This document shows positions 3,712 through 64,000 of a stretch of DNA of 64,000 nt, piece after piece. How positions within the stretch are numbered: the stretch's first letter is position 1; each line of letters opens with the position of its first letter. The DNA is taken from positions 28,915,319 through 28,979,318 of the forward strand of contig NC_089236.1 in assembly GCF_963924675.1 (NCBI RefSeq). Direction: 5' to 3'. A model generated the notes under the pieces. The model was not told the DNA's origin. It made no database searches and saw nothing but the letters and a program-made list of their open reading frames with translations. Made by a program: the position numbers and the translations under genes. The stretch is from Phocoena phocoena. Taxonomy: Eukaryota; Chordata; Mammalia; Artiodactyla; Phocoenidae.

Positions 3712-3948
3712 ACATAATTATTTGGGACTTCCCTCGTGGTCCAGTGGCTAATACTCCGCACTCCCAATGCAGGGGGCCTGGGTTCAACCCCTGGTCAGGG
3801 AACTAGATCCCACATGCATGCTGCAACTAGAGATCCCGCTTACCACAACTAAGACCCAGCACAGCCAAATAAATAAATAAATATTGAAAATAAATAAATA
3901 AATAATGTACAATGATCCTGAAAAAAAGTTTAAAAAGACATAATTATT
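3712..3948 (+). mobile_element. CHR-type tRNA-derived SINE with target-site duplication
   Basis: The body (3723-3937) begins GGGACTTCCCTCGTGGTCCAG and contains the internal promoter-like 'gggttcaacccctgg' B-box region. It ends in AAATAAATAAAT-type repeats. It is flanked by the 11-bp direct repeat ACATAATTATT at 3712-3722 and 3938-3948, which marks insertion by target-primed reverse transcription. This family is typical of cetaceans and their close relatives and helps place the host. Confidence 0.93.
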
Positions 3949-4473: not shown

Positions 4474-4947
4474 CTCATAAAATGATTACAATAACCACAT
4501 ACTAATCTGTAGTATTGATATGTCATGTTTATTCAACCAAACATCAAATTAACCAAGTAAAATACTGCTAATAAACATTCGCAAAACTTATTTATCCTAA
4601 TCATAATACAAAGTACAATTAAGACTTCAATTGTTGCTAATATGCTTCTTCTGCCTTTGATAAAGGTGCAATGTTTTTAAGTGAGTCAAATGTCTCCTTT
4701 GTTTAGGTCTTTTATATTTTGATTGGATTTTAGAGATTTGTATATTTAATTTGATTTATCTAATTTCATGGAAATTTAGCAGGTAAACCTTGAAACAATA
4801 TAATAGACAATGATGTATGATAAAATGTATGTATGTAATAATTTCTTCCTGCTTCTCAGTCTATGAAGTGTTTTAATATACATTATGTGATTTCATCACG
4901 TAGTGTTAAAATTTATTGTCATTCCACAAATTGATATGTTTAAAAAG

Positions 4948-4951
4948 ATTA
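4948..4951. repeat. 4-bp target-site duplication, left copy (ATTA)
   Basis: ATTA directly precedes the TGTG start of the 5' LTR and is repeated at 11805-11808 directly after the 3' LTR. Four base pairs is the length expected for gammaretroviral integrase. Confidence 0.93.
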
Positions 4952-5254
4952 TGTGGGGCCTTTAGGGACTTTCCACCCCCTCACTTGTTCCCGTAAACCA
5001 ATTCTTCTCCCTATCGTGCGCCACTCCTTCTCCCTATCGAAACCAATTCTTGGAGTTTTTCAGTTGACAGGGACTTGCCAGACAGCGGGTAATTTTCCAG
5101 TTGCCCGTAACAGGTATACGCCCTAACCGCCACAATGAACAAACAACTATAACGGCCAGAAGGTGGGACAAAAGTTCCTAAGCCAATGAATTCAAAAGTC
5201 ACCACATTTACCCAATCATTGTGAGAATATACCCGCCCTATGAGTAAATAAACC

Positions 5255-5262
5255 TATAAAAA
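5255..5262 (+). promoter_or_regulatory. TATA box of the 5' LTR
   Basis: TATAAAAA lies about 85 bp upstream of AATAAA, in the normal U3 position. The identical copy in the 3' LTR is at 11633-11640. Confidence 0.8.
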
Positions 5263-5338
5263 GTATGTGATTCCGCTTTTAGGGGTTCCCCATCGGCCTC
5301 CTGCGTGAGGTTCAGGGAACCCCGGTGCATCGGCTCCT

Positions 5339-5344
5339 AATAAA
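5339..5344 (+). terminator. AATAAA polyadenylation signal in R of the 5' LTR
   Basis: AATAAA occurs between the TATA box and U5. The functional copy for full-length transcripts would be the one in the 3' LTR at 11717-11722. Confidence 0.8.
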
Positions 5345-5428
5345 CCTCTTGCGTGTTGCAACGGCTCTCGACTCTTGGCGGTTCTTGGGCGAGTTGGAAT
5401 CCCTCGTAGACCGTTTGGGTCTAACATC

Positions 5429-5446
5429 TGGGGGCTCGTCCGGGAT
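5429..5446 (+). promoter_or_regulatory. Primer binding site, tRNA-Pro
   Basis: The 18 bases TGGGGGCTCGTCCGGGAT are the tRNA-Pro-complementary site shared by many gammaretroviruses. They start two bases after the LTR end. Confidence 0.95.
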
Positions 5447-5835
5447 CCCCACTCGCCCCCGGGTCACAAGAACATCGGGAGTCGGAGGTATCAGGTAGGC
5501 TCGAGCCCAATTGTCTGTTTGTTTGTCGTTTGTTTGTTGCTAGCCGCCATTAGGAAAAAGCCGTGCGAACCGGCTTGCTGTGGAATCTGTATTGGACTCC
5601 TGGCTAGGCAGACGTGCCGAAAGCTGGTGTCCACGGGCCCCGGGGGACGCCCTGGTGGTCCATCTGGAAGGAGAAACAAATTTTGTCTCCCCTTCATCTG
5701 GTTCTGGCAGGTTATATAAGCTGCCATCTGAATTTGAGTTGGTTTCGGGTTTAAGTTCGCGGCGGCAATATCAATGTGTGTCTTTTGAAATTTTATTGTT
5801 TTTCTGTACTATTATCTTTCTTTTGACGGACGACA
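5447..5835 (+). other. Proviral 5' leader (packaging region, candidate splice donor)
   Basis: This is the untranslated region between primer site and gag. A CAG|GTAGGC sequence with GT at 5495-5496 is a plausible donor for the spliced env message. The packaging signal would be expected downstream of it. An in-frame TGA at 5824-5826, four codons before the gag ATG, rules out an N-terminally extended glycosylated Gag in this copy. Confidence 0.6.
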
Positions 5836-7371
5836 ATGGGACAAACTATGACGACTCCTCTTTCTCTTACCCTAAGCCACTGGACCGAAGTTAGGGCTAG
5901 GGCCCACAACCTTTCGGTAGAAGTAAGGAAAGGAAAATGGCAAACGCTGTGTACCTCTGAGTGGCCTACATTTCAGACAGGGTGGCCACCCGAGGGATCT
6001 TTTTTGTTAGATAAGGTTGGGCTAGTCAAGTCTAGGGTCTTTAACACAGGACCCCACGGACACCCAGACCAGATACCATATATCCTGGTCTGGGAAGATC
6101 TAGTTCTCTCCCCGCCTCCGTGGGTCCGGCCCTTTGTTTCCTCAACAGGCACGTCTGCATGCGCTCCAGCACAATCGGAGATATTGGCCCTGAAGAAAAC
6201 CCCAGACACGGAAAAGTCATCTGCTGCCCCGGACCCGCCAAAGGCGATATATCCTGACCTGCAGTCTGATTTGCTTCTTCTAGATTCCCCACCTCCTTAT
6301 CCTCCGGCCCTAAATCCCATGTCGCCCCTAGGACCCCCAGCTTCACAACCCTCCGCACCAGTAGGGCCACCTGTTATGGCGGAAAGGGGGGGTCCCTCGG
6401 CGGGCACCAGAAGCCGGAGGGCTGTTTCCCCGGATTCTACTGCTTTACCCCTTAGAGAATATGGCCCCCCCGATAACCACGGGAATAGGCCCCTTCAATA
6501 CTGGCCCTTTTCCTCTGCAGATCTTTATAATTGGAAGATGCATAACCCTACTTTCTCTGAAAACCCACAGGCTCTTACTGCTTTAATAGAGTCTCTTGTC
6601 TTCTCCCACCAACCCACCTGGGATGATTGTCAACAGCTCCTCCAGACTCTCCTCACAACTGAAGAGAGGCAACGGGTTCTCCTGGAGGCTAAAAAGAATG
6701 TGTTAGCCGCCAATGGACAACCTACCCAGTTGCCTAACGAGATTGATGCCAGGTTTCCACTCGTCAGGCCGAATTGGGACTTTAATACCCCGGAAGGTAA
6801 GGAGCACCTGAAAATGTATCGCCAGGCTCTGGTGGCGGGTCTCCATGGAGCGGCCAGGCGCCCCACGAATTTGGCTAAGGTAAGAGAGGTAACTCAGGGG
6901 CCCCAGGAATCGCCAACCGTGTTCCTAGAACGCTTAATGGAGGCTTTTAGACGATTCACTCCTTATGATCCAACCTCTGAGGAACATAAGGCCACCATAG
7001 CAATGGCCTTTATTGACCAGGCGGCCCCTGATATTAGAAAGAAGTTACAAAGGCTGGATGGCCTACAAGGTTTCTCCCTTCAGGACTTAGTAAAAGAGGC
7101 AGATAAGGTATATAATAAGAGGGAGACAGAAGAAGAAAGAGAAGAAAGAAAGCAGAAGGAACAAGAGGCTCGTGAGGTAAGATGAGATAAGAGGCAAGAA
7201 AGACATTTGAGTAAGATACTGGCCACTGTAGTCAGAGGAGGAAACAGTAGAGACAGAAATAGACAGGAAGGGTGAACAACGGATAGAAGGCGGCCATTAG
7301 ACAAGGACCAATGTGCCTACTGTAAAGAAAAAGGTCATTGGGCAAGAGAATGCCCTAAAAAAAGGAACGGG
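5836..7371 (+). pseudogene. gag: gag polyprotein, interrupted by two TGA codons
   Basis: Gag forms the virus particle. The open part is 449 codons (5836-7185). It starts MGQT, giving the N-terminal glycine used for myristoylation. The matrix region is followed by a proline-rich p12-like segment with a PPPY late-budding motif at residues 152-155. Capsid starts near residue 205 (PLREYG). The major homology region is at residues 354-366 (QG-X2-E-X7-R). A charged Glu/Arg-rich segment ends at TGA 7183-7185. The same frame continues through a second TGA at 7273-7275 to a nucleocapsid zinc knuckle of C-X2-C-X4-H-X4-C type (7312-7353). Both TGA codons could derive from CGA by CpG decay. The natural gag stop is lost in the deletion that joins this gene to pol near 7372-7387. 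The matrix and capsid reading frame is otherwise intact. Confidence 0.93.
7183..7275 (+). other. Two in-frame TGA stops between capsid and nucleocapsid
   Basis: TGA at 7183-7185 and TGA at 7273-7275 both lie in the gag frame, 30 codons apart, while the sequence between them still reads as a conserved capsid-nucleocapsid linker. The usual gammaretroviral readthrough stop lies after nucleocapsid, so these are mutations and not the programmed stop. Confidence 0.9.
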
Positions 7372-9447
7372 GGAAGGATCACTAAGCCTTTTCATCTGTA
7401 CGTGGCCGAGAATAAAGGTATTGCAAAGGGAGTACTAACTCAGAAACTGGGCCCCTGGAATCGCCCGGTTGCGTACCTATCAAAGAAATTGGATCCTGTG
7501 GCAGCAGGATGGCCCGCCTGTTTAAAAATAATCGCCGCGGTGGCCGCTTTGGTCAAAGATGCTGACAAACTGACTTTGGGGCAGAACCTAACGATAACAG
7601 CCCCCCATGCATTAGAAAGTGTAATTCGCCAGCCACCCGACAGATGGCTAACAAATGCCAGGATGACTCATTACCAAGCCCTGCTGTTAAACTCAGACCG
7701 TATTAAGTTTACCTCAGCCACAGGACTCAACCCGGCCACCTTGCTACCCGACCCTGACCTGGAAAGCACTACCGTCATCCATGATTGTCAGGAAGTACTG
7801 GCTGCAGCACACGGTAGCAGACCAGACTTGATGGATCAGCCCCTCCCCAACGCCGACGTTACCTGGTTTACTGACGGAAGCAATTTCCTAGAGGAAGGTA
7901 AGCGTCGGGCGGGAGCAGCCGTGGTAGACGGGAAAGAGGTCATCTGGGCAGCCACATTACCGCAAGGGACATCAGCCCAACGGGCTGAACTAATCGCCAT
8001 GACTAGAGCATTGGAACTAGCAGAAAACAAAAAGGTAAACATCTATACGGACAGTAGATACGCATTTGCTACCGCCCAGGTCCATGGGGCCATTTACCAA
8101 CAAAGAGGGTTGCTCACCTCGGCGGGCAAAGAAATTAAAAACAAAGAAGAAATAGTGGCACTGCTAGCTGCCCTCATGCTCCCCACTAAAGTCAGCATCA
8201 TTCATTGCCCCGGACACCAGAAGGACAATACCCCGGTGACAAGAGGCAACAACATGGCAGATAGGGTGGCACGAGAAGTGGCTCTACGGGAAATCATACT
8301 AGAGCTATCAGATGAGAGTCCTGGGAAACCAAATGATAGGGGAACAATTACCCCAGCCATAACTAAAGGAACATTATCTCCTCAACAAGCAAAATCCATG
8401 CTACAACAGATTCACAGATGGACGCACTTGGGAACCAAGAAGATGGTGTCCCTACTACACAAGACAGGTTATGATACCCCTGGACTAACTAAATTAGCTG
8501 AGCAGATTGCACGAGAGTGCATTCCATGCCAACAGGTAAACTCCCATAAAGGAAAACTTGAGGTCGGAAAAAGGCTCAGAGGAGACCGCCCAGGAGCCTA
8601 TTGGGAGGTCGACTTCACTGAAATACGCCCTGGAGGGTACGGGAACAGGTATCTTCTAGTTTTTATAGATACCTTCTCAGGATGGGTAGAAGCTTTCCCG
8701 ACGAAGGAGACAGCTACTGTGGTGGCCAAAAAGATCTTAAAAGAAATTTTCCCCCGGTTCGGGGCACCAAAGGTAATAGGATCAGATAATGGTCCCGCCT
8801 TCGTCGCCCAGGTAAGTCAGGGTGTGGCCAAATACCTGGGGACTGATTGGAAATTACATTGTGCCTATAGACCCCAGAGTTCAGGACAGGTAGAGAGAAT
8901 GAATAGAACTCTAAAAGAGACCCTAACTAAATTGTCCATAGAGACTGGCGGTACAGATTGGACGGTGCTCCTTCCCTTAGCCCTGTTCCGGGCTAGAAAT
9001 ACCCCCTCCCGCTATTATCTTACTCCATTTAAAATACTATACGGGGCCCCACCTCCTCTTTTTACGCTAAGGAAAAAATTAAGTCCTGACTGCCAGAATA
9101 ACACTGACTTATATGCTAGGCTGTTGGGACTCCAGTTGGTCCAAAAGGAGGTGTGGTCCCAGCTGGCAGAGGCTTACCGACCAGGAACACCAGCAGAGGC
9201 TCATCCCTTCCAAGTCGGAGATTCCGTGTACGTCCGTCGGCACCGAACCCAGACTCTAGAGCCTCGGTGGAAAGGACCATACATCGTCCTGCTCACCACC
9301 CCCACGGCTATAAAGGTAGACGGCATCGCTGCGTGGATCCACGCTTCACACGTGAAGGCCGCACCAGCATCTGCAACATCGGAATGGCGAGCCCAAAAGA
9401 CCAGCAACCCGCTCAAGCTCAAGCTTCTGCGATCATCAGATTTATAA
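7372..9447 (+). pseudogene. pol: pol remnant: RT connection, RNase H and integrase; protease and RT core deleted
   Basis: The frame is open from 7276, after the second gag TGA, to 9447, giving 723 codons. It passes directly from the zinc knuckle into the late part of RT (motif near 7384, PFHLYV). Protease and the RT fingers and palm, with the polymerase aspartates, are absent. Numbering from the methionine at 7402, the RNase H residues are D158, E196, D217 and D287. The integrase zinc site is H338, H342, C373 and C376, and the integrase triad is D404, D462 and E498 with the standard 35-residue gap. The C-terminal region ends at 681 and overlaps env by 64 bp, as in intact gammaretroviruses. 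Because pol shares the gag frame, the deletion is in frame. The remnant could encode nuclease and integrase folds but no polymerase. Confidence 0.93.
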
Positions 9448-9994
9448 CTTTAACTTTGTTACCCCTACTGACTGTGAGTAATTTTAGTCCTTACCTGCCC
9501 CAGCGTTTAACCTGGCAGGTAATTTCCCAGACTGGAGATGTAATATGGTCTGTTAGCAATATCGCTCCCCCATGGACCTGGTGGCCAAACCTTTTTCCTG
9601 ATGTTTGTAAACTGGCCATAGGGGCTCCCGGTTGGGATTTAGAAGACTATTATGATCAACATAATGTTCCAAAAATTTTATCAACTAGAGCTGATTCCTC
9701 CGGAAAGGGTTGCAAAAACGGGATTCGGAGGACTGGGCTCAGAGCTCCTGCTTTCTACATATGCCCCGGGTTCCATCGCCACAGGTCCCTTAATTATAAA
9801 TATGGAGGAACTGAAAACTTTTATTGCAAAAGCTGGGGATATGAAACCACAGGAGACACCTATTGGAAGCCCACCTCTGGCTGGGACTTTATTAAGGTGA
9901 CAGCCAATTATACACACCCAACCAACCCCTTAACTTATAGGCCTGAATGTACTAAATGGTGCCATCCCCTTAAGATTTCTTTTAGTGAACCAGG

Positions 9995-10010
9995 AAAAAA
10001 AGATAAAAAA
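9995..10010 (+). other. First env frameshift, in A-runs
   Basis: A seven-A run (9995-10001) and a six-A run (10005-10010) lie where recognisable Env sequence switches from frame 3 to frame 1. An extra base would explain it. An assembly error in a homopolymer is an alternative. Confidence 0.7.
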
Positions 10011-10231
10011 CTGGATAAATGGCCATTCATGGGGAATCAGGTTTTATAAAGAAGGATATGATGATGGATTACTAATGACCATCAAACTAAAAATTGAAAC
10101 CCCTACTCCAGTTCCTATAGGCCCCAACCCTGAGATAGGGCACTCTTTGCTACCTTTGGCCCCTCCCACAGCGTTACCAGAGATAAGAAACCAAACTTTT
10201 GAGCCAAAAGGAATGACAATCAAGCCCAAGA

Positions 10232-10238
10232 CCCCCCC
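10232..10238 (+). other. Second env frameshift, at a C7 run
   Basis: Seven consecutive C residues sit where Env sequence switches from frame 1 to frame 2, just before the conserved segment leading to CWLC. One extra C would explain it. Confidence 0.7.
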
Positions 10239-11310
10239 GGGACCGAATGCTCTCATTGGTCCAGGCGGCTTTTGAGGTTTTAAATGCCACAAACCCGGAG
10301 GCTACCAAATCATGTTGGCTTTGCTATGCTGCTCCTCCCCCTTATTATGATGCTATAGGATATAATTCTAATTATAATAATGTTAACACTCCAGATCAAT
10401 GTCGATGGAAACAAGAAGAAAATAGTAAATTGACCCTGGCCTCAGTATTAGGAAACGGTACATGTGTAGGAACGCCCCCCTCGTCCCACCAACATCTTTG
10501 TGCCAATTTAAGCCTCCCACAGGGCTCAGGGTATCTCCTCCCTCCTCCGGATGGATGGTGGGCATGTAACACAGGATTGACCCCCTGCATTTCTTTAGAG
10601 GTCCTTAAAGCTTCAACCGATTTTTGTGTGTTAGTTCAGCTAGTCCCCAGACTCATTTATCATTCAGATTCATCCTTTCTAGATGAATATGAGGGCAGAA
10701 GAAGGTTTAAGAGGAAACCCATAACACTCACCCTGGCTGTACTCCTAGGACTAGGAATGGCAGCCGGGGTAAGAACAGGTGCAACAGCCCTCATTCAACA
10801 ACCCCACTATTATGATGCCTTAAGACAAGCTGTAGATGTTGACCTCCGGGCGTTAGAAAGTTCCATAATTCAGTTAAAAGAATCCCTCACCTCGCTTTCA
10901 GAGGTGGTAATGCAAAACAGGAGGGGATTAGATCTGCTGTTCCTTAAGGAGGGCGGACTATGTGCTGCACTAAAAGAAGAATGCTGTTTTTATATTGATC
11001 ATTCTGGGGCTATTACCAAAACTATGGACAAACTTAGGGAGCGCCTGGACAAAAGACAACAGAAAAGGGAAAATCAAAAAGGGTGGTTCCAATCATGGTT
11101 TGATAAATCTCCCTGGCTTACTACTTTAGTTTCCACCTTGTTAGGGCCCCTCATTATTTTATTGTTTCTCTTAACTTTTGGACCATACATTCTGAATCGC
11201 CTGATAGCCTTTATTAGAGAACGCATTAGTACGGTACAAGTTTTAATGCTAAGGCAACAATACCAAAACTCACAAAAAGAAACTGAAATTCCATGATTGA
11301 AATTAGTTAC

Positions 11311-11329
11311 AAAAAAAAAGGGGGGGGAA
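11311..11329 (+). promoter_or_regulatory. Polypurine tract
   Basis: Nine A then eight G then AA directly abut the TGTG start of the 3' LTR. This is the plus-strand primer site for reverse transcription. Confidence 0.95.
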
Positions 11330-11804
11330 TGTGGGGCCTTTAGGGACTTTCCACCCCCTCACTTGTTCCCGTAAACCAATTCTTCTCCCTATCGTGCGCC
11401 ACTCCTTCTCCCTATCGAAACCAATTCTTGGAGTTTTTCAGTTGACAGGGACTTGCCAGACAGCGGGTAATTTTCCAGTTGCCCGTAACAGGTATACGCC
11501 CTAACCGCCACAATGAACAAACAACTATAACGGCCAGAAGGTGGGGCAAAAGTTCCTAAGCCAATGAATTCAAAAGTCACCACATTTACCCAATCATTGT
11601 GAGAATATACCCGCCCTATGAGTAAATAAACCTATAAAAAGTATGTGATTCCGCTTTTAGGGGTTCCCCATCGGCCTCCTGCGTGAGGTTCAGGGAACCC
11701 CGGTGCATCGGCTCCTAATAAACCTCTTGCGTGTTGCAACGGCTCTCGACTCTTGGCGGTTCTTGGGCGAGTTGGAATCCCTCGTAGACCGTTTGGGTCT
11801 AACA
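11330..11804 (+). repeat. 3' LTR (475 bp) of the gammaretrovirus
   Basis: It is the same length as the 5' LTR, with a single mismatch (G at 11546 against A at 5168). TATA is at 11633-11640 and AATAAA at 11717-11722. It ends CTAACA followed by the right ATTA duplication. Confidence 0.97.
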
Positions 11805-11808
11805 ATTA
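11805..11808. repeat. 4-bp target-site duplication, right copy (ATTA)
   Basis: Matches 4948-4951 and closes the insertion. Confidence 0.93.
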
Positions 11809-13874: not shown

Positions 13875-14169
13875 AATTCTTTTTTTTTTTTTAATTTATT
13901 TATTTTTGCTGTGTTGGGTCTTCGTTTCTGTGCGAGGGCTTTCTCTAGTTGTGGCAAGCAGGGGCCACTCTTCATCACGGTGCGCGGGCCTCTCACTATC
14001 GCGGCCTCTCTTGTTGCGGAGCACAGGCTCCAGAAGCGCAGGCTCAGTAGTTGTGGCTCACGAGCCTAGTTGCTCTGCGGCATGTGCGATCCTCCCAGAC
14101 CAGGGCTCGAACCCGTGTCCCCTGCATTAGCAGGCAGATTCCCAACCACTGCACCACCAGGGAAGCCCC
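13875..14169 (-). mobile_element. CHR-type tRNA-derived SINE, reverse orientation
   Basis: The reverse complement starts GGGGCTTCCCTGGTGGTGCAG at about 14168 and proceeds through the B-box region (14108-14118) to a T-rich (A-tail) end at about 13879-13910. The body is longer than that of the 54076 copy, and the tail side carries an extra 'tttttgctgtgttgggtctt' segment typical of an older CHR subtype. No target duplication could be identified with confidence. Confidence 0.92.
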
Positions 14170-34623: not shown

Positions 34624-34846
34624 GGGCTTCCCTGGTGGCGCAGTTGTTGAGAGTCCACCTGCCGACGCAGGGGACATGGGTTCGTGCCGCAGTCCAGGAA
34701 GATCCCACATGCCGTGGAGCAGCTAGGTCCGTGAGCCATGGCCGCTGAGCCTGCGCATCTGGAGCCTGTGGTCCGCAATGGGAGAGGCCACAACAGTGAG
34801 AGGTCCGTGTACCGCAAAAACAAACAAACAAACAAACAAACAAAAC
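34624..34846 (+). mobile_element. CHR-type SINE, cetacean subtype
   Basis: It starts GGGCTTCCCTGGTGGCGCAG. Downstream are 'gaagatcccacatgccgtgg' and 'gagaggccacaacagtgaga', ending in a (CAAA)n tail. AACTGAT occurs just before (34616-34622) and just after (34847-34853), a probable core of the target duplication. Confidence 0.95.
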
Positions 34847-44581: not shown

Positions 44582-44718
44582 GGGAATTCCCTGGTGGTCC
44601 AGTAGTTAGGACTTGGTGCTTTCACTGCTATGGGCCAGGGTTGGATTCCTGGTTAAGAAACTAAGATCCTGCAAGCCTCTCAGCACGGCCAAAAAAATAA
44701 AAATAAAATAGAGAGAGA
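44582..44718 (+). mobile_element. Short tRNA-derived SINE of the CHR/Bov-tA type
   Basis: The body starts GGGAATTCCCTGGTGGTCCAG, contains a degenerate B box ('gggttggattcctgg') and ends in an A-rich tail near 44710. AGAGTTGA flanks it at 44574-44581 and 44719-44726. At about 137 bp it is shorter than the other SINEs here and is probably an older cetartiodactyl subtype. Confidence 0.88.
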
Positions 44719-49919: not shown

Positions 49920-52830
49920 ATCACACCCGGAAGGATTGGTAGGGAATTACCCAGTGAAATAAGCTGAACCGGATGCTATGCTGCCCCACCGAGATTTCCC
50001 TTCTGGAGAAAGAATTTATTCCCTCAGCTGTTGGACATTCTGCCAGCCCATGGCCCCCAGCTGTCAGGCTTTTCCAGGGATAGCTTAGCCTAGCCCAATT
50101 CGTACCCCCTTCCCAGGGCAGCCTCACACTCAATGACTCACCAAGAGAGGGTCAGATATAACGGCCTGCCCCTCCCCCCACCTCTAGATAATATTGAGGG
50201 TTCATACAGCTGTACATTTGTACAGCATTTGGTAGACCTACACTGCAGCCAAGCTTCTCTTTTTGTCCAATCCTGTTTCATTCCCCTCACTTCGACAGGT
50301 TTTGACCCCTAGGGATGAAATGTTGTGCACTCTCATCTCATTCTCAGAGTTGGCTTCCCAAAGAATCTAACCCGTGATATCAGAAATTCCTTATAAATAC
50401 AGTACACTTTATCATATAACTAAACATATACACAGAACTGACCAAAAGTCTAATCCCATCATAGCTTTAAGCCTTTTTTATTCCAGTCATCATAAGAAAC
50501 CCAAGAATTCCAAAAAATTCCCCTTCATCATAAGGTTTGTGCATTCCCTGCAACTCCCATATCACTCACCATCTCAACTCCTCAAAGTCTTCCCCTGAAT
50601 CGTTTGTAATTTATGGACCACCGAAAGCAAAATTCTCTATATTCTCAAATCCTTTCTGAACAGTTTCTTCAATATCTTTTTCTGAGTAAAAATCTTCTTT
50701 TCCCTTAGAGCATTCTTTTCTCTAGAGTCCTTTCCAATGGTATCTGTTTTCTCTGCAGCCTTCCTTATATCATAGATGATCTCCCTGCTAGTCTTTGCCA
50801 TTTCTAAATGATTTTCTATACTCAATCCTCACTCACCGAATTGAAACAATGTTATTAGATTCTAACCCTTGTCATCCTTCTTTGCTGTAGTCATAAAAAG
50901 AAATACTAGATCATTCCTTCTAATTATTGTAAAATATGGTTCATTATTACTCTTAAAAAAGCTGTTATCAAATTGTCAGTGACTTCAATACCTTTGTAAC
51001 CGATCCTTACTATAACCTAACCTCTGTCAAAAATCCAGAAATAACAAAATTAAAACCATCAAATCAATAAATAATATTTAGTAAGAGTTTCTTGTGCATA
51101 TAACAAGTTCACGAACTGGGAGCTTTCACATTCAAAACTGATATGAGACTCAGGGACCTGACATTACAGGATGGCTTATAAAGTGAAAATGAGGAAGTTG
51201 TTTAACCTTTACAGTGATTGGTTATTACAATGGAGGTTTCCAGATGGCAGGGGATTGTTTAAAAGTAACTATTTTACACCATTTTAGGAAGATGACTTAA
51301 ATTTCTTTTATGGCATTTATAAGAAATAACCTAAGATTCACTTATGTTCATGAAATAAGCTAGATTTAGTTTTGTTTACATGGCTTAAATGGCTTTATCT
51401 GCTCATGGAATTTTCACATCCAGTTTCCATTTTGTATTAATACCTCTCCATTCTTGAACTTTTCACATCCAATAGTCTCTTTCCCCTCTTTGCCATCTGA
51501 TGCTATTGTTATATTGTAGAACTTTCATTACCAGTGAATGTGCCCCTTCAGTTTCAAACATTGTCTTCCTCTCTTCCTCCAAAGACACTTGTCTTTCTAA
51601 CCATCCCCTCTCATTCCTCAATTCCAAAATTATTTGACCACATAAGAAACTCCAACACATTGAACCAGCCAGCTTTTATTGTTCTGTTCCTCAAGCCCAT
51701 CCCCTAGGTTATGAAAGATTAACATAATCTCAAATAACTATGTGAAATGTGGTTTATTTGACAGCAAGGGATATACAAATATTAAAGAAATTCCAGATAG
51801 CAGTGATGCTGGGTATCTGCATTTTAGAGCTGTTCCATTTTTTTTCTTAGCAGTAAATTAACTCCTATATGTCTGGAGCAGACCAGGTTGGGATATTTGG
51901 TAGTGGTGGTTAAAAACCACCTGTGGGGGCTCTGGTTGTTTTTCCTAATAACATGCCCATGTGCAGTATTATAAATTATGCAATATTATTATAAAGCCCT
52001 ACCCAAAATGCTTCAACTCTGAATAACACTGAAGATATTTACTATATATTTGTTACTGAACTCCTATGTACCTGCACAGTAACAAAAATATGATTTACTA
52101 AGAGTACAGAGGTCTCATTATATTTTGTTATTATGCCTCTCTTTTAAGTTGCTTAGAATTCCAACTTGTATTCCAATACAAAAACTGTTCTGAATATGGA
52201 TGTAATTTCAGACCCTCCTATCACCCCTCAATGTGTTCCTGGTTAAATCCAGCTCTCTCTGAATCTACACCTAGGCAGCTAAACAAGATTGTAGAAAAAT
52301 GACAAAGCCATGCTGATTGGAACTTAAATTTGTGTCACCAAATAAAGAGTTGTATGGCAGACAATTGCATCTCATTTCCTTAGATTATTCTTATTCTAGG
52401 TGAGATTTTACACCTCCTCCCTCTTCAAACCTCCAATGCTCTGCCACATTTTAACTTTCTGATAATAATATCTACATGTTCTCACCCCTATATCTACACA
52501 CATATTTGAACTTTTTAGCCATATATCCTACTTTCTAACCCTATATCTCCCTGAATCCTGTCTCCCTCATATAAAACATATCCAATCCAAAAGTTATGTC
52601 TTCTCTCACCTAAGTTATCAAATAGTCCCTCTTTAAGGAATCATTCTGTTTATCATACAACACTCCGTAATGTCACAGTATTGTAAAGTTCTCCTGACTC
52701 TGTGTACCCTCTAGCGACTCCCCTACCTCCGTTCCCTTTTACCACAAAAACATTTAAAAGTTTATTATTATTTATTATTATTATTAATTATTATTAGTGT
52801 TTTTAAAACACTAATTTAAAAAGATGCATG
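49920..52830. other. Non-coding stretch, GC-richer first 400 bp, then AT-rich
   Basis: The block 49925-50340 is richer in G+C and looks like an old repeat with a pyrimidine-rich end, but no family could be fixed. An (ATT)n tract lies at about 52764-52796, followed by a short hairpin with arms ATTAGTGTTTT/AAAACACTAAT. No gene was seen. Confidence 0.45.
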
Positions 52831-53037
52831 GGGCTTCCCTGGTGGCGCAGTGGTTAAGAGTCTGCCTGCCGATGCAGGGGGACACGGGTTCATGCCCTAG
52901 TCCGGGAAGATCCCACATGCCGTGGAGTGGCTGGACCCGTGAACCATGGCCACTGAGCCTGCGTGTCCGGAGCCTGTGCTCCGCAACGGGAGAGGCCACA
53001 ACAGTGAGAGGCCCACGTACCGAAAAAAAAAAAAAAA
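52831..53037 (+). mobile_element. CHR-type SINE, cetacean subtype
   Basis: It starts GGGCTTCCCTGGTGGCGCAG, has the same body as the 34624 copy and ends in 15 A residues. An L1 3' end in the same orientation follows immediately. No convincing target duplication was found. Confidence 0.95.
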
Positions 53038-54075: not shown

Positions 54076-54282
54076 TTTTTTTTTTTTTTTCTGTATGCGG
54101 GCCTCTCACTGTCGTGGCCTCTGCCGTCGCAGAGCACAGACTGCGGATGCACAGGCTCAGCGGCCATGGCACACAGGCCCAGCCGCTCTGAAGCATGTGG
54201 GATCTTCCCGGACCGGGACACGAACCCGCATCCCCTGCATCGGCAGGCGGACTCTCAACCACTGTGCCACCAGGGAAGCCCC
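54076..54282 (-). mobile_element. CHR-type SINE, cetacean subtype, reverse orientation, young
   Basis: The reverse complement starts GGGGCTTCCCTGGTGGCACAG and runs to a pure A tail (T-run at 54076-54090). The body is close to the other cetacean-type copies and it is bounded by perfect 16-bp duplications. Confidence 0.97.
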
Positions 54283-57797: not shown

Positions 57798-58189
57798 TGT
57801 TTTTTCCTAGCAGCTCTTACTTTATTTATTTTATTATTTTATTTTTTAAAAATCTTTATTGGAGTATAATTGCTTTACAGTGGTGTGTTAGTTTCTGCTT
57901 TATAACAAAGTGAATCAGTTTTATATATACATATGTTCCCATATCTCTTCCCTCTTGCATCTCCCTCCCTCCCACCCTTGCTATCCCACTCCTCCACACA
58001 GTCACAAAGCACCAAGCTGATCTCCCTGTGCTATGCAGCTGCTTCCCACTAGCTATCTACCTTACGTTTGGTAGTGGATATATGTCCATGCCTCTCTCTC
58101 GCTTTGTCACAGCTTACCCTTCCCCCTCCCCATATCCTCAAGTCCATTCTCTAGTAGGTCTGTGTCTTATTCATGTCTTACCCCTAGGT

Positions 58190-61100
58190 TCTTCATGACA
58201 TTTTTTTTTCTTAAATTCCCTATATATATGTGTTAGCATACGGTATTTGTCTTTCTCTTTCTGACTTACTTCACTCTGTATGACAGACTCTAGGTCTATC
58301 CACCTCATTACAAATAGCTCAATTTCGTTTATTTTTATGGCTGAGTAATATTCCATTGTATATATGTGCCACATCTTATTTATCCATTCATCCGAAGATG
58401 GACACGTAGGTTGTTTCCATCTCCAGGCTATTGTAAATAGAACTACAATGAACATTTTTGTACATGACTCTTTTTGAATTATGGTTTTCTCAGGGTATAT
58501 GCCCAGTAGTGGGATTACTGGGTAATATGGTAGTTCTATTTGTAGTTTTTCAAGGAACCTCCATACTGTTCTCCACAGTGGCTATATCAATTTACATTCC
58601 CACCAACAGTGCAAGAGGGTTCCCTTTTCTCCACACCCTCTCCAGCATTTATGGTTTGTAGATTTTTTGATGATGACCATTCTGACTGGTGTGAGATGAT
58701 ATCTAATTTTAGTTTTAATTTGCATTTCTCTAATGATTAATGATGTTGAGCATTCTTTCATGTGTTTGTTGGCAGTCTGTATATGTACTTTGGAGAAATG
58801 TCTATTTAGGTCTTCTGCTTATTTTTGGATTGGGTTGTTTGTTTTCTTTGTTATTGAGCTGCATAAGCTGCTTATGAATTTTGGAGATTAATCCTTTGTC
58901 AGTTGCTTCATTTGCAAATATTTTCTCCAATTCTGAAGGTTGTCTTTTGGTCTTGCTTATGGTTTCCTTTGCTGTGCCAAAGCTTTGAAGTCTCATTAGG
59001 TCCCATTTGTTTATTTTCGTTTTTATTTCCATTTCTCTAGGAGGTGGGTCAAAAAGGATCTTGCTGTGATTTATGTCATAGAGTGTTCTACCTATGTTAT
59101 ACTCTAAGAGTTTGATAGTTTCTAGACTTACATTTAGGTCTTTAATCCATTTTGACCTTATTTTTGTGTATGGTGTTAGGGAGTTATCTAATATCATACT
59201 TTTACATGTACCTGTCCAGTTTTCCCAGCACCACTTATTGAAGAGGCTGTCCTTTCTCCACTGTACATTCCTGCCTCCTTTATCAAAGATAAGGTGACCA
59301 TATGTGTATGGGTTTATCTCTGGGCTTTCTATCCTGTTGCATTCATCTATCTTTCTGTTTTGGTGCTGGTACTATACTGTCTTGTTTACTGTAGCTTTGT
59401 AGTATATTCTGATGTCACATAGCCTGATTCCCCCAGCTCCGTTTTTCATTCTCAAGATTGCTTTCGCTATTTGGGGTCTTCTGTGTTTCCATACAAATTG
59501 TGAAATGTTTTGTTCTAGTTCTGTGAAAAATGCCAGTACTAGTTTGATAGGGATTGCATTGAATGTGTAGATTGCTTTGGGTAGTAGATTCACAATGTTG
59601 ATTCTTCCAATCCAAGAACATGATATATCTCTTCGTCCATTTGTATCATCATTAATTTCGTTCATCAGTGTCTTATAATTTTCTGCATACAGGCCTTTTG
59701 TCTCCTTAGGTAGGTTTATTCCTAGATCTTTTATTCTTTTTGTTGCAATGGTAAATGGGAATGTTTTCTTGATTTCACTTTCAGATTTTTCATCATTAGA
59801 GTATAGGAATGCCAGAGATTTCTATGCATTAGTTTTGTATCCTGCTACTTTACCAAATTCATTGTTTAACTCTAGTAGTTTTCTGGTAGCATCTTTAGGA
59901 TTCTCTATGTACAGTATCATGTCATCTGCAAACAGTGACAGCTTTACTTCTTCTTTTCCGATTTGGATTCCTTTTATTTCCTTTTCTTCTCTGATTGCTG
60001 TGGCTAAAACTTCCAAAACTATGTTGAATAAGAGTGGTGAGAGTGGGCAACCTTGTCTTGTACCTGATCTTATGGAAATGCTTTCAGTTTTTCACAATTG
60101 AGGACGATGCTGACTGTGTGTTTGTCATATATGGCCTTTATTATGTTGAGGAAAGTTCCCTCTATGCCTACTTTCTGTAGGGTTTTTATCATAAAGCTTT
60201 GTCAAAAGCTTTCTCTGCATCTATTGAGATGATCATATGCTCTTACTACTTCAATTTGTTAATATGGTGTATCACATTGATTGATTTGCGTATATTGAAG
60301 AATCCTTGCATTCCCTGAATAAACCCCAATTGATCATGGTGTATGATCCATTTAATGTGCTGTTGGATTCTGTTTGCTACTATTTTGTTGAGGATTTTTG
60401 CATCTTTGTTCATCAGTGATATTTGCCTGTAGTTTTTTCTTTTTGAAATCCTTTTCTGGTTTTGGTATCAGGGTGATGGTAGCCTCGTAGAATGAGTTTG
60501 GGAGTATTCCTCCCTCTGCTATATTTTGGACAAGTTTGAAAAGGATAGGTGTTAGCTCTCCTCTAAATGTTTGATACAATTCACCTGTGAAGCTATCTGG
60601 TCCTGGGCTTTTGTTTGTTGGAAGATTTTTAATCACAATTTCCATTTCAGTGCTTGTGATTTGTCTGTTCATATTTTCTATTTCTTTCTGATTCATACTT
60701 GGCAGGTTGTGCATTTCTAAGAATTTGTCCATTTCTTCCTGGTTGTCCATTTTATTGGCATAGTGTTGCTTGTAGTAATTTCTCATGATCGTTTGTATTT
60801 CTGTGGTGTCAGTTGCTACTTCTGCTTTTTCGTTTCTAATTCTATTGATTTGAGTCTTCCCCGTTTTTTCTTGATGAGTCTGGATAATGGTTTATCAATT
60901 TTGTTTATCTTCTCAAAGAACCAGTTTTTAGTTTAATTCATCTTTTCTATCATATCCTTCATTTCTTTTTCATTTATTTCTGACCTGATTCTCATGATGT
61001 CTTTCCTTTGGCTAACTTTGGAGGATTTTTGTTCTTCTTTCTCTAATTGCTTTAGGTACAATGTTAGGTTGTTTATTCGAGATGTTTCCTGTTTCTTAAG

Positions 61101-62000
61101 GTTGGATTGTATTGCTATAAACTTTCCTCTTAGAATGGCTTTTGCTGCATCCCATAGATTTTGGGTCATCGTGTCTCCACTGTCATTTGTTTCTAGGTAC
61201 TTTTTGATTTCTTCTTTGATTTCTTCAGTGATGACTTCGTTATTAAGTAGTGTATTGTTTAGCCTCCATGTGTTTGTGTTTTTTACAGATCTTTTCCTGT
61301 AATTGATATCTAGTCTCATAGCATTGTGGTCAGAAAAGATACTTGATACAATTTCAATTTTCTTAAATTTACCAAGGCTTGATATGTGACACAAGATATG
61401 ATCTATCCTGGAGAATGTTCCATGAGCACTTGAGAAAATGTGTTTTCTGTTGTTTATTGCTGGAATGCCCTATCAATATCAATTAAGTCCATCTTGTTTA
61501 ATGTATCATTTAAAGCTTCTGTTTCCTTATTTATTTTCATTTTGGATGATCTGTCCATTGGTGAAAGTGGATTGTTTAAGTCCCCTACTATGATTGTGTT
61601 ACTGTCGATTTCCCCTTTTATGGCTGTGAGTATTTGCCTTATGTATTGAGGTGCTCCTATGTTGAGTGCATAAATGTTTACAATTGTTATATCTTCCTCT
61701 TGGATCAATCCCTTGATCATTATGTAGTGTCCTTCTTTGTCTATTCTAATAGTCTTTATTTTAAAGTCTATTTTCTCTCATATGAGAATAGTTACTCCAG
61801 CTTTCTTTTGGTTTCCATTTGCATGAAATATATTTTTCCATCCCCTTACTTTCAGTCTGTACGTGTCTCTAGGTATGAAGTGGGTCTCTTGTAGACAGCA
61901 CATATATGGTCTTATTTTTGTATCCATTCAGCCAATCTGTGTTTTTTGTTTGGAGCATTTAGTCCATTTACATTGAAGGTAATTATTGATATGTATGTTT
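58190..62000 (-). pseudogene. L1 ORF2 (endonuclease and reverse transcriptase), broken
   Basis: The endonuclease part is at about 62000-61450 (NVNGLNAPNKKHRLAEW-like wording, then IVGDLNNPLSPMDRS at 61454-61720). The reverse transcriptase part includes TSTEMEIVIKNLPTNKSPGPD (60352-60786), a palm segment with [12 protein letters not shown] (59822-60016, which keeps the catalytic FADD) and the thumb and C-terminal parts (59372-59665, 58802-59197, 58171-58455). Each is in a separate frame or bounded by stops, so several frameshifts and stops separate them. The order is intact with no large deletion evident. Confidence 0.92.
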
Positions 62001-62149
62001 CTATTCACATTTTCTAAATTGTTTTGGGTTCATTACTGTAGGTCTTTTCCTTCTCTTGTGTTTCTTGCCTAGAGCAGTTCCTTTAGCATTTGTTGTGAAG
62101 CTGGTTTTGTTGTGCTGAACTCTCCCAACTTTTGCTTGTCTCTAAATCT

Positions 62150-62963
62150 TTCAATTTCTCCATCAAATCTGAACGAGATTCTTGCTGGGTAGAGTAATCT
62201 TGGTTGCAGGTGTTTCTCCTTCATCACTTTAAATATGTCCTACCAGTCCCTCCCGGCTTGCAGAGTTTCTGCTGAAAGATCAGCTGTTAACCTCATGAGG
62301 ATTCTCTTGTGTGTCATTTTTTGTTTTTCCATTGCTGCTTTTAGTATGTTTTCTTTGTATTTAATTTTTGACAGTTTGATTAATATGTGTCTTGGCATAT
62401 TTATCCTTGGATGTATCCTGTATTGGACTCTCTGTGCTTCCTGGACTTGATTAACTATTTCCTTTCCCATATTAGGGAAGTTTTCAACTATAATTTCTTC
62501 AAATATTTTCTCAGTCCCTTTCTTTTTTCTCTTCTTCTTCTGGAACCCCTATAATTCGAATGCTGGTGCATTTAATGTTGTCCCAGAAGTCTCTGAGACT
62601 GTCCTCAGTTCTTTTCATTCTGTTTCCTTTTTTCTGCTCTGCAGTAATTATTTCCACTATTTTATCTTCCACGTCACTTATCCGTTTTTCTGCCACAGTT
62701 ATTCTGCTATTGATCCCATCTAGAGTAGTTTTAATTTCATTTATTGTGTTGTTCATTGTTATTTGTTTCATCTTTAGTTCTTCCAGGTCCTTGTTAAATG
62801 TTTCTTGCATTTTATCTATTCTATTTCCAAGATTTTAGATCATCTTTACTATCATTATTCTGAATTCTTTTTCTTGTAGACTGCCTATTTCCTCTTCATT
62901 TCTTAGGTCTGGTGGGTTTTTATCTTGCTCTTTCATCTGCTGTGTGTTTTTCTGTCTTCTCAT
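62150..62963 (-). pseudogene. L1 ORF1 (RNA-binding protein), broken
   Basis: ORF1p is the trimeric RNA chaperone of L1. The start is the methionine at 62961-62963 (MRRQKNTQQMKEQDK). A stop at 62835-62837 ends the first segment after IVKMI, and reading on in the same frame resumes the coiled-coil part (NKDLEELKMKQ, then VAEKRISDVEDK) and the RRM-like start (IRIIGVPEEEE). The frame is then lost near 62511, and the C-terminal domain continues in another frame (VQEAQRVQYRIHPR). One stop and one frameshift are therefore visible in this ORF1. Confidence 0.9.
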
Positions 62964-63800
62964 TTTGCTTATCTTACTGTGTTTGAGGTCTCCTTTTTCC
63001 AGGCTGCAGATTCGTAGTTCCCATTGCTTTTGGTATCTGTCCCCAGTGGCTAAGGTTGGTTCAGTGGGTTGTGTAGGCTTCCTGGTGGAGGGGAATAGTG
63101 TCTGTGTTCTCATGGATGAGGGTTGATCTTTTCTTTCTGGTGAGCATTTCCACAGCTTGTCGTGTGTTTTGAGGTGTCTGTGTACTTATTATGATATTAG
63201 GCAACCTCTCTGCTAATGGGTGGGTTTGTTTTCATCTTTTGCTAGTTGTTTGGCATAGGATGTCCAGCACTGTAGCTTGCTGGTCGTTGAGTGAAGCTGG
63301 GTGCTAGTATTGAGATGGAGATCTCTGGGAGATTTTTGCCATTTGATATTATGTGGAGCTGGGAGTTCTCTTGTGGACCAGTGTCCTGAAGTTGACTCTC
63401 CCACCTCAGAGACAAAGCACTGACTCCTGGCTGCAGCACCAAGAAATTTTCATCCACATGGCTGTTATGATGTCACTGTCCATGGATGTCCTCATATTCC
63501 AGTCCGAGAGGCTTGTCTGCACACCTGCCAGGGCTTGTGGGGCTCGGAGCTGAGTCTTGGGCTTCAGAGATCGGATCACAGGGAGAGGACTTGTGGCATG
63601 AACACAGCCTGTAGGGGTTTAGTACACCACAGCTAGCCAGGTGCGAGTCTGGAGAAAAGTCTGGACCTGCCAGACAGGCACGAGACTTTTTCTTCCCTCT
63701 TTGTTTCCGGGTGCATGAAGAGAGGGGATTAAGAGTGCCACTTGAAGAAGCTCCAGTGACGGGCGCAAGCTGCGACTAACAGCCGGAGCCCCAGAGATGG

Positions 63801-64000
63801 GCATGAGATACTATGCAGCTTTCATTATTGATCATAATTAATTTGTATTCATTTAAAAAATATTTTTGTGTAGATTTAACCATATCATTTAAGACGATTG
63901 AATTTCACTCAGATTTTATCCTATTCACAGTGGTTGTTTATTTGGAAATTGAATTTATACTTGCATAATGATACAGCCTCCTATCATTTCCCAAATTTGA
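63801..64000. other. AT-rich flank, nothing recognised
   Basis: Composition returns to AT-rich directly after the L1 5' end. Confidence 0.5.

What the first reader, a model, noticed from the sequence alone, without database searches (positions are those of the whole stretch)
4952..11804. Very young endogenous gammaretrovirus, probably lineage-restricted or still polymorphic
The 475-bp LTRs differ at one position (5168 A, 11546 G) and the 4-bp duplication ATTA is perfect. LTRs are identical at integration, so about 0.2% divergence implies recent insertion. With an assumed neutral rate near 1e-9 per site per year this is of the order of one million years, with a very wide error because it rests on one change. 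Such an insertion is likely to be absent in sister species and may segregate within the host species.
Basis: partly seen in the sequence, partly recalled or inferred. Interest (0 to 1): 0.75.

Follow-up and report, generated by a model that had tools for sequence, protein, structure and literature searches.

The report
Young, defective whale endogenous retrovirus
This is a recently inserted but crippled retrovirus copy in what looks like a toothed-whale genome; it lacks its own protease and most of its reverse transcriptase, yet the same crippled form sits at more than a hundred places in that genome, so it was probably copied with the help of another retrovirus.

Summary
In detail: 475-bp LTRs differ at one site, with perfect ATTA target duplications. 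It is 6,853 bp long; nucleocapsid runs in frame into the RT tail, RNase H and integrase, so protease and the RT polymerase core are gone. The exact junction occurs 107 times in the window's own 2.51-Gb assembly, the window's copy included. Of 36 other family pairs dated, LTRs differ by 0-5 bases and 31 have perfect 4-bp duplications. One deletion was thus copied to many loci; without protease and polymerase the element must have been moved by a helper (inferred). Full-length relatives with similarly young LTRs exist in the genome. The deletion and two of four other lesions are shared with other copies and so mostly predate integration. Recent changes in the remaining pol fit neutrality. Age: about 1 My, range 0.03-6 My; this insertion is ordinary within a recent burst. 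Polymorphism, the empty site and host species were not tested. Helper-dependent ERV families are known; no report of this one appeared in the searches made.

The parts
4948..4951 (.). target-site duplication ATTA, 5' copy
4952..5426 (+). 5' LTR, 475 bp, TG...CA
5429..5446 (+). primer-binding site; tRNA-Pro type is recalled, not from a call
5827..7185 (+). gag part (stop to stop): matrix and capsid; ends at an in-frame stop in the capsid-nucleocapsid linker
7276..9447 (+). open frame: nucleocapsid zinc knuckle fused in frame to RT tail, RNase H and integrase
7377..7381 (+). deletion junction: left block ends 7377, three filler bases 7378-7380, right block from 7381; protease and RT core absent
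9120..10049 (+). frame holding the N-terminal part of env (surface subunit)
9934..10275 (+). frame holding a middle piece of env after a frame break
10217..11296 (+). frame holding C-terminal surface subunit and transmembrane subunit after a second frame break
11311..11329 (+). polypurine tract
11330..11804 (+). 3' LTR; TATA box at 11633, polyadenylation signal at 11717
11805..11808 (.). target-site duplication ATTA, 3' copy

Best explanation
The provirus is one copy of a young, non-autonomous gammaretroviral subfamily. Shown: one deletion (about 1.45 kb, three filler bases) removed protease and the RT polymerase core and fused nucleocapsid in frame to RT tail, RNase H and integrase; that exact junction is present 107 times in the assembly; the copies checked sit at separate loci with unrelated flanks, complete LTRs, mostly perfect 4-bp duplications and near-identical LTR pairs. 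Inferred: LTR-driven RNA keeping primer site and polypurine tract was packaged and reverse-transcribed by proteins from full-length relatives or an exogenous virus, and integrated anew many times within the last few million years. This insertion happened about 1 My ago (0.03-6 My), and much of its coding damage was inherited from its template.
For: LTR pair, TSD, PBS, PPT. Pfam: MA, CA, then zinc knuckle, RT_RNaseH, RNase H, IN, Env; no protease and no RVT_1 in the 8 frames scanned; residue 35 of the frame aligns to residue 456 of a Delphinus Pol that has both. Of 22 LTR copies tested for a partner, 20 had a complete one: 16 short and 4 full (inner part 5,527-6,108 bp in the 14 short ones measured, 7,345-7,404 in the full); 18 of 20 with perfect TSD. 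The junction is spanned by alignment in 13 of the first 14 short copies; the 14th carries the exact 33-mer between its LTRs; 3 further copies span it; 0 of 5 full-length units do. No bases shared by both sides of the junction in 5 of 5 full units. 40 of 40 scored hits are 100% over 161 bp; 107 exact 33-mers, 0 in the reversed control. LTR differences in 16 junction copies: 9 pairs with 0, mean 0.81, about 0.87 My; 13 of 16 perfect TSD. Host flanks of 20 junction copies and the window (150-400 bases): 1 similar pair of 210. Gag stop at 7183 shared by 11 of 16 short copies; first env break by 7 of 13. Singletons in short-form pol: 16 synonymous, 29 missense, 4 nonsense; neutral expectation 29/67/4%. 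Two sites separate all short from all full copies in pol.
Against: No mobilisation was observed; the helper is inferred. The relation of short and full copies in pol is unresolved: the best tree mixes them with low support and 13 of 39 variants shared among short copies have both states among full ones, but separate groups are not rejected (AU p = 0.27). Sampling is biased: the 40 LTRs most like this one, and 20 of 40 perfect junction matches. 4 of 20 junction copies had no complete 3' LTR in the stretch fetched; L026 had no partner and L044 only a partial one. The pol frame is uninterrupted over the stretch compared in 8 of 16 short copies, and none of 39 shared variants is a stop (about 1.5 expected), so selection on it is not excluded. 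The ratio of short to full copies is unknown (search not answered).
Confidence: 0.87

Rival explanations
1. Autonomous provirus that inserted about 1 My ago and decayed afterwards, the deletion included.
For: One LTR difference; two stops, two frame breaks and a deletion could each arise in place; the second env break (shared by 0 of 16 copies assessable) and the stop at 7273 (1 of 16 short, 0 of 5 full) do look recent.
Against: The deletion, one stop and one frame break are shared with other loci. Under the LTR clock, two stops plus two frame breaks have a chance of only 0.9-4%.
Confidence: 0.03
2. The deletion arose in one copy and spread through already integrated full-length proviruses by gene conversion.
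For: Different TSDs would be kept under conversion; the variable LTR site 217 could be a conversion trace.
Against: Over 100 loci on contigs C1 to C22 would need converting; 9 of 16 junction copies have identical LTR pairs, as expected of fresh insertions.
Confidence: 0.05
3. Copies are segmental duplications or LINE-1 processed copies.
For: LINE-1 is present in the window.
Against: Complete LTRs on both ends with 4-bp duplications that differ between loci; flanks unrelated in 209 of 210 pairs.
Confidence: 0.02
4. Part of the pattern (second env frame break, some stops) is sequencing or assembly error.
For: Both env breaks lie near short homopolymers; the second is shared by 0 of 11 short and 0 of 5 full copies assessable.
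Against: Does not touch the deletion, the LTRs or the shared lesions.
Confidence: 0.2

Closest known systems
Killer whale endogenous retrovirus (KWERV, GQ222416)
   Same: A cetacean gammaretrovirus; a passage of PMC4664997 gives an estimated entry into delphinoid genomes within the past 12 My.
   Different: The original paper is not held and the record could not be compared; recalled as nearly intact, unlike the short form here.
Odontocete class I lineages 118-123 of Zheng et al. 2021 (PMC8297934)
   Same: Toothed-whale-only gammaretroviral lineages, generally high copy number, LTR distances peaking at 0 in some.
   Different: Mined by RT protein with a 150-residue cut-off, so copies without the RT core would be missed by that step (inference); the sections read describe loss of env in lineage 307, not loss of protease and RT.
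Mouse IAP type I-delta-1, ETn/MusD, human HERV-H deleted form, HML-2 type 1 (all recalled)
   Same: Deletion derivatives of a retrovirus amplified with proteins supplied in trans, some with an in-frame Gag-Pol fusion.
   Different: Other groups and hosts; different deletions.
Cetacean Pol/Env proteins P0122 Delphinus (87%), P0175 Kogia (92%), P0001 vaquita Env (95%), and unnamed P0121 (98%)
   Same: Same gammaretroviral group.
   Different: Among the 120 proteins listed of 135 found with the junction query, by the coverage column only one (P0299) covers both sides, and its alignment has no nucleocapsid; P0241 holds the two sides about 500 residues apart.

Membership tests
Gammaretrovirus (endogenous, class I) | MLV-type matrix and capsid | tested here: met
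   Gag_MA 1.7e-46, Gag_p30 6.8e-100; a Moloney MLV capsid chain among 9 PDB matches
Gammaretrovirus (endogenous, class I) | single zinc knuckle, MLV-type integrase C-terminus, TLV_coat Env | tested here: met
Gammaretrovirus (endogenous, class I) | Pol close to PERV/MLV-type viruses | tested here: met
   63% to PERV-B (78% of query), 59% to Rauscher MLV, 64% to 'Gammaretrovirus sp.' records, after the cetacean hits; no tree of the genus was built
Gammaretrovirus (endogenous, class I) | gag stop read through into protease-pol | not testable with these tools
   the segment is deleted here
Gammaretrovirus (endogenous, class I) | 4-bp target duplication, TG...CA LTR | tested here: met
   31 of 36 other pairs
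Non-autonomous, trans-mobilised ERV subfamily | loss of an enzyme needed for replication | tested here: met
   no protease, no RVT_1
Non-autonomous, trans-mobilised ERV subfamily | same derivative junction at many independent insertions | tested here: met
Non-autonomous, trans-mobilised ERV subfamily | cis signals kept (LTR, PBS, PPT) | tested here: met
   the packaging signal was not tested
Non-autonomous, trans-mobilised ERV subfamily | related full-length partner in the same genome | tested here: met
   4 of 20 pairs and one further unit are full length; no copy was assessed as a working helper
Non-autonomous, trans-mobilised ERV subfamily | mobilisation in trans observed | not testable with these tools
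   needs experiment
KWERV | near identity to GQ222416 | not testable with these tools
   paper not held; the record was not available for comparison
Segregating (polymorphic) insertion | empty or solo-LTR allele in some individuals | not tested
   one assembly only; flank searches not answered

The most novel reading that the evidence does not exclude
A protease- and RT-less parasite of a whale gammaretrovirus has out-copied or rivalled its helper, is still inserting, and many of its 100-plus copies are insertion polymorphisms in the living species; the nucleocapsid-RNase H-integrase fusion may interfere with the helper.
Probability: 0.3. Interest if true: 0.7.

Novelty: new member of a known kind. 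Interest (0 to 1): 0.5.

Why it matters
It gives a datable natural case of what looks like a helper-dependent gammaretrovirus expanding in a long-lived marine mammal. A survey that mines ERVs by RT would miss such copies, so recent retroviral activity in whales may be underestimated. The junction is a clean marker for presence/absence typing across individuals and species.

Tried and rejected
The LTR in the phage collection, an Env piece and an LTR 36-mer in IMG/VR, and the Pol frame in the GTDB contigs gave no relative. Rfam at gathering thresholds gave nothing. Two ARAGORN tRNA calls coincide with SINE heads and were dropped. A strict SINE core pattern gave no match; the longer consensus did. 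The excess of damage over the LTR age was first read as a possible sign of LTR conversion; it was dropped once the deletion and two of four other lesions proved shared. Recombination between short and full copies was considered (13 of 39 variants), but the AU test does not need it (p = 0.27). Rows dropped: L033 (474 bp) from the site-217 and distance counts; L026 (no partner, no junction match); L044 (partial partner); 4 of 20 junction copies without a complete 3' LTR; the C15 pair (4 differences, no matching duplication) because its first LTR seems shared with a short provirus.

Full report
What was checked. The LTR pair, its single difference and the ATTA duplication are as described. The primer-binding site starts two bases after the 5' LTR, the polypurine tract precedes the 3' LTR, and the 3' LTR has a TATA box at 11633 and a polyadenylation signal at 11717. 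Pfam finds gammaretroviral matrix and capsid, a zinc knuckle, RNase H, integrase and Env; Gag matches 9 solved sequences, capsid, matrix and Gag chains, one named as Moloney MLV capsid.

The frame 7276-9447 starts in nucleocapsid and continues at residue 35 with what is residue 456 of a Delphinus Pol and residue 240 of a 98% identical unnamed Pol. Protease and the RT polymerase core are missing; no other frame scanned holds them (8 scanned). Gag has in-frame stops at 7183-7185 and 7273-7275; Env lies in three frames. The provirus cannot replicate alone (inference from these losses).

Host. Seven alignments to a recalled CHR-type SINE consensus lie at six places in the window, and the best named protein relatives are vaquita, Delphinus, Lagenorhynchus and Kogia. 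The assembly has 2.51 Gb in 439 contigs; the window is C18:28915319-28979318. This points to a toothed whale; the species, and 'delphinid', are not shown.

Copies of the LTR. The own genome gave 544 candidates, of which 40 were scored, all 475-base matches but one of 474. Of 38 others fetched, a simple rule called 13 solo LTRs with matching 4-base flanks, 12 5' LTRs, 9 3' LTRs and 4 unclassified; 37 of 475 bases differ from the window's 3' LTR by 2-5 bases. The window's one LTR difference is at a variable site: A in 31, G in 6 of these 37.

Pairs. For 22 proviral LTRs I looked for the partner at the full-length and short spacing. 20 had a complete one; 16 short, 4 full; 18 of 20 perfect duplications. 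LTR differences: short 0,1,0,0,2,1,2,1,0,1,1,4,5,1 and 4,1; full 1,4,0,1. In 13 of the 20 one LTR has 475 and the other 520 bases, through a 45-base tandem duplication; among 16 junction copies only 1 shows this mix.

The junction. In 13 short copies and 3 further ones the window's 7150-7650 aligns through the junction (two of the 16 with one or two single-base gaps, two cut by the end of the fetched stretch); in 5 of 5 full units the left block ends at 7377 and the right block starts at 7381, with no bases shared by both sides. For one short copy the stretch missed the junction, but the exact 33-mer lies between its LTRs. A 161-base search returned 40 of 40 scored places at 100% (220 candidates). 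The 33-mer occurs 107 times, 58 forward and 49 reverse, 0 in the control; mutated junctions are not counted; contigs C1 to C22 each hold at least one. Flanks of 150-400 bases upstream of 20 junction copies and the window are unrelated in 209 of 210 pairs; the one similar pair shares 112 bases at 93%. An identical junction with three filler bases means one deletion event; distinct flanks and target duplications mean repeated integration. Since the copies lack protease and polymerase, these were supplied in trans; that step is inferred.

Damage was partly inherited. The stop at 7183 is in 11 of 16 short and 1 of 5 full copies; the stop at 7273 in 1 of 16 and 0 of 5. The first env break is shared with 7 of 13 short and 0 of 5 full copies; the second with 0 of 11 and 0 of 5 assessable. 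Within 7150-7650 the window has no base that is absent from all 16 short copies; within 7381-9444 it has 6 bases of 2,064 not seen in the 20 copies compared. So the mismatch between heavy damage and a young LTR pair (0.9-4% under a simple model) is eased: the deletion, one stop and one env break came with the template.

Age. One difference in 950 sites gives 1.16 My, 95% range 0.03-6.4 My, at 9.1e-10 per site per year; the rate is 2.34e-8 per generation (passage of PMC4895049) divided by about 25.7 years, implied by the paper's 4,900-8,800 generations for 126-227 thousand years. Sixteen junction copies give a mean of 0.81 differences, 0.87 My. CpG observed/expected is 0.78 in the LTR, 0.32-0.87 in inner parts and 0.12-0.20 in flanks. 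Short copies differ from each other by 1.0% in pol on average, and from full copies by 1.3%, so the subfamily is older than its youngest insertions: several rounds of copying. Age under 0.25 My for this copy has a probability of 0.02-0.07 depending on the prior.

Selection. In 16 short copies plus the window, single-copy changes in pol are 16 synonymous, 29 missense, 4 nonsense, against 29/67/4% expected without selection; shared changes are 14, 25, 0. In 4 full copies single-copy changes are 13, 14, 1, too few to conclude. The frame is uninterrupted over the compared stretch in 8 of 16 short and 2 of 4 full copies. The short form's RNase H-integrase frame shows no clear sign of selection, though the lack of stops among shared changes leaves it open.

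Short and full forms. Two synonymous differences separate all short from all full copies; 13 of 39 variants shared among short copies have both states among full ones; the best tree mixes the forms with low support, and separate groups are not rejected (AU p = 0.27). Whether the forms recombine is open.

Literature. PMC8297934: abstract and sections 9, 10, 11, 13 read, passages for the rest. PMC4664997, PMC4895049, PMC3758190, PMC9825726, PMC4333357, PMC3756080: passages only. LaMere 2009 and Wang 2013: not seen, recalled. No report of this deletion subfamily appeared in the titles and abstract starts listed; most subscription papers are not held.

Verdict. The insertion is real and young. What is more interesting is that it is one of over a hundred copies of a deletion form that must have depended on a helper. 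That kind of element is known from mice and primates (recalled); this one did not appear in what I could search.

Noticed in passing
G000 C15:8761255-8773584: Probably a tandem array: a short-form junction lies 3,966 bases upstream of an LTR (the same distance as in the window) that is also the 5' LTR of a full-length unit, so a short and a full provirus seem to share an LTR.
   Followed up: partly
LTR U3; L013/L069 and others: A 45-base tandem duplication is present in one LTR and absent from the other in 13 of 20 pairs found through the 475-base LTR form, but in 1 of 16 pairs found through the junction.
   Followed up: partly
5168 / 11546: The only LTR difference is at a site that is variable across the family (G in 6 of 37 other copies; both LTRs of copy L040 carry G).
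   Followed up: partly
3724-3883, 13916-14169, 34624-34756, 44582-44677, 52830-52963, 54193-54282: tRNA-derived SINEs similar to the recalled CHR consensus; two of them coincide with the ARAGORN tRNA calls.
   Followed up: partly
58001-64000: Probably a decayed LINE-1 on the minus strand (L1 RNA-binding domain at 62243-62548, minus strand A-rich); no other domain found in the seven other frames scanned there.
   Followed up: no
G000 C22 (130 Mb): At least 9 of the listed junction copies lie on C22, which is about 5% of the assembly; a possible excess, listing truncated.
   Followed up: no
G000 C7:97140912 and 97149435: A 5' LTR (L026) without partner at either spacing has a short-form junction about 8 kb downstream: perhaps a nested or tandem unit.
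   Followed up: no
felid proteins P0254, P0255, P0264: Predicted felid proteins combine Gag and RT-tail domains without RVT_1; possibly parallel deletion forms or gene-model joins.
   Followed up: no
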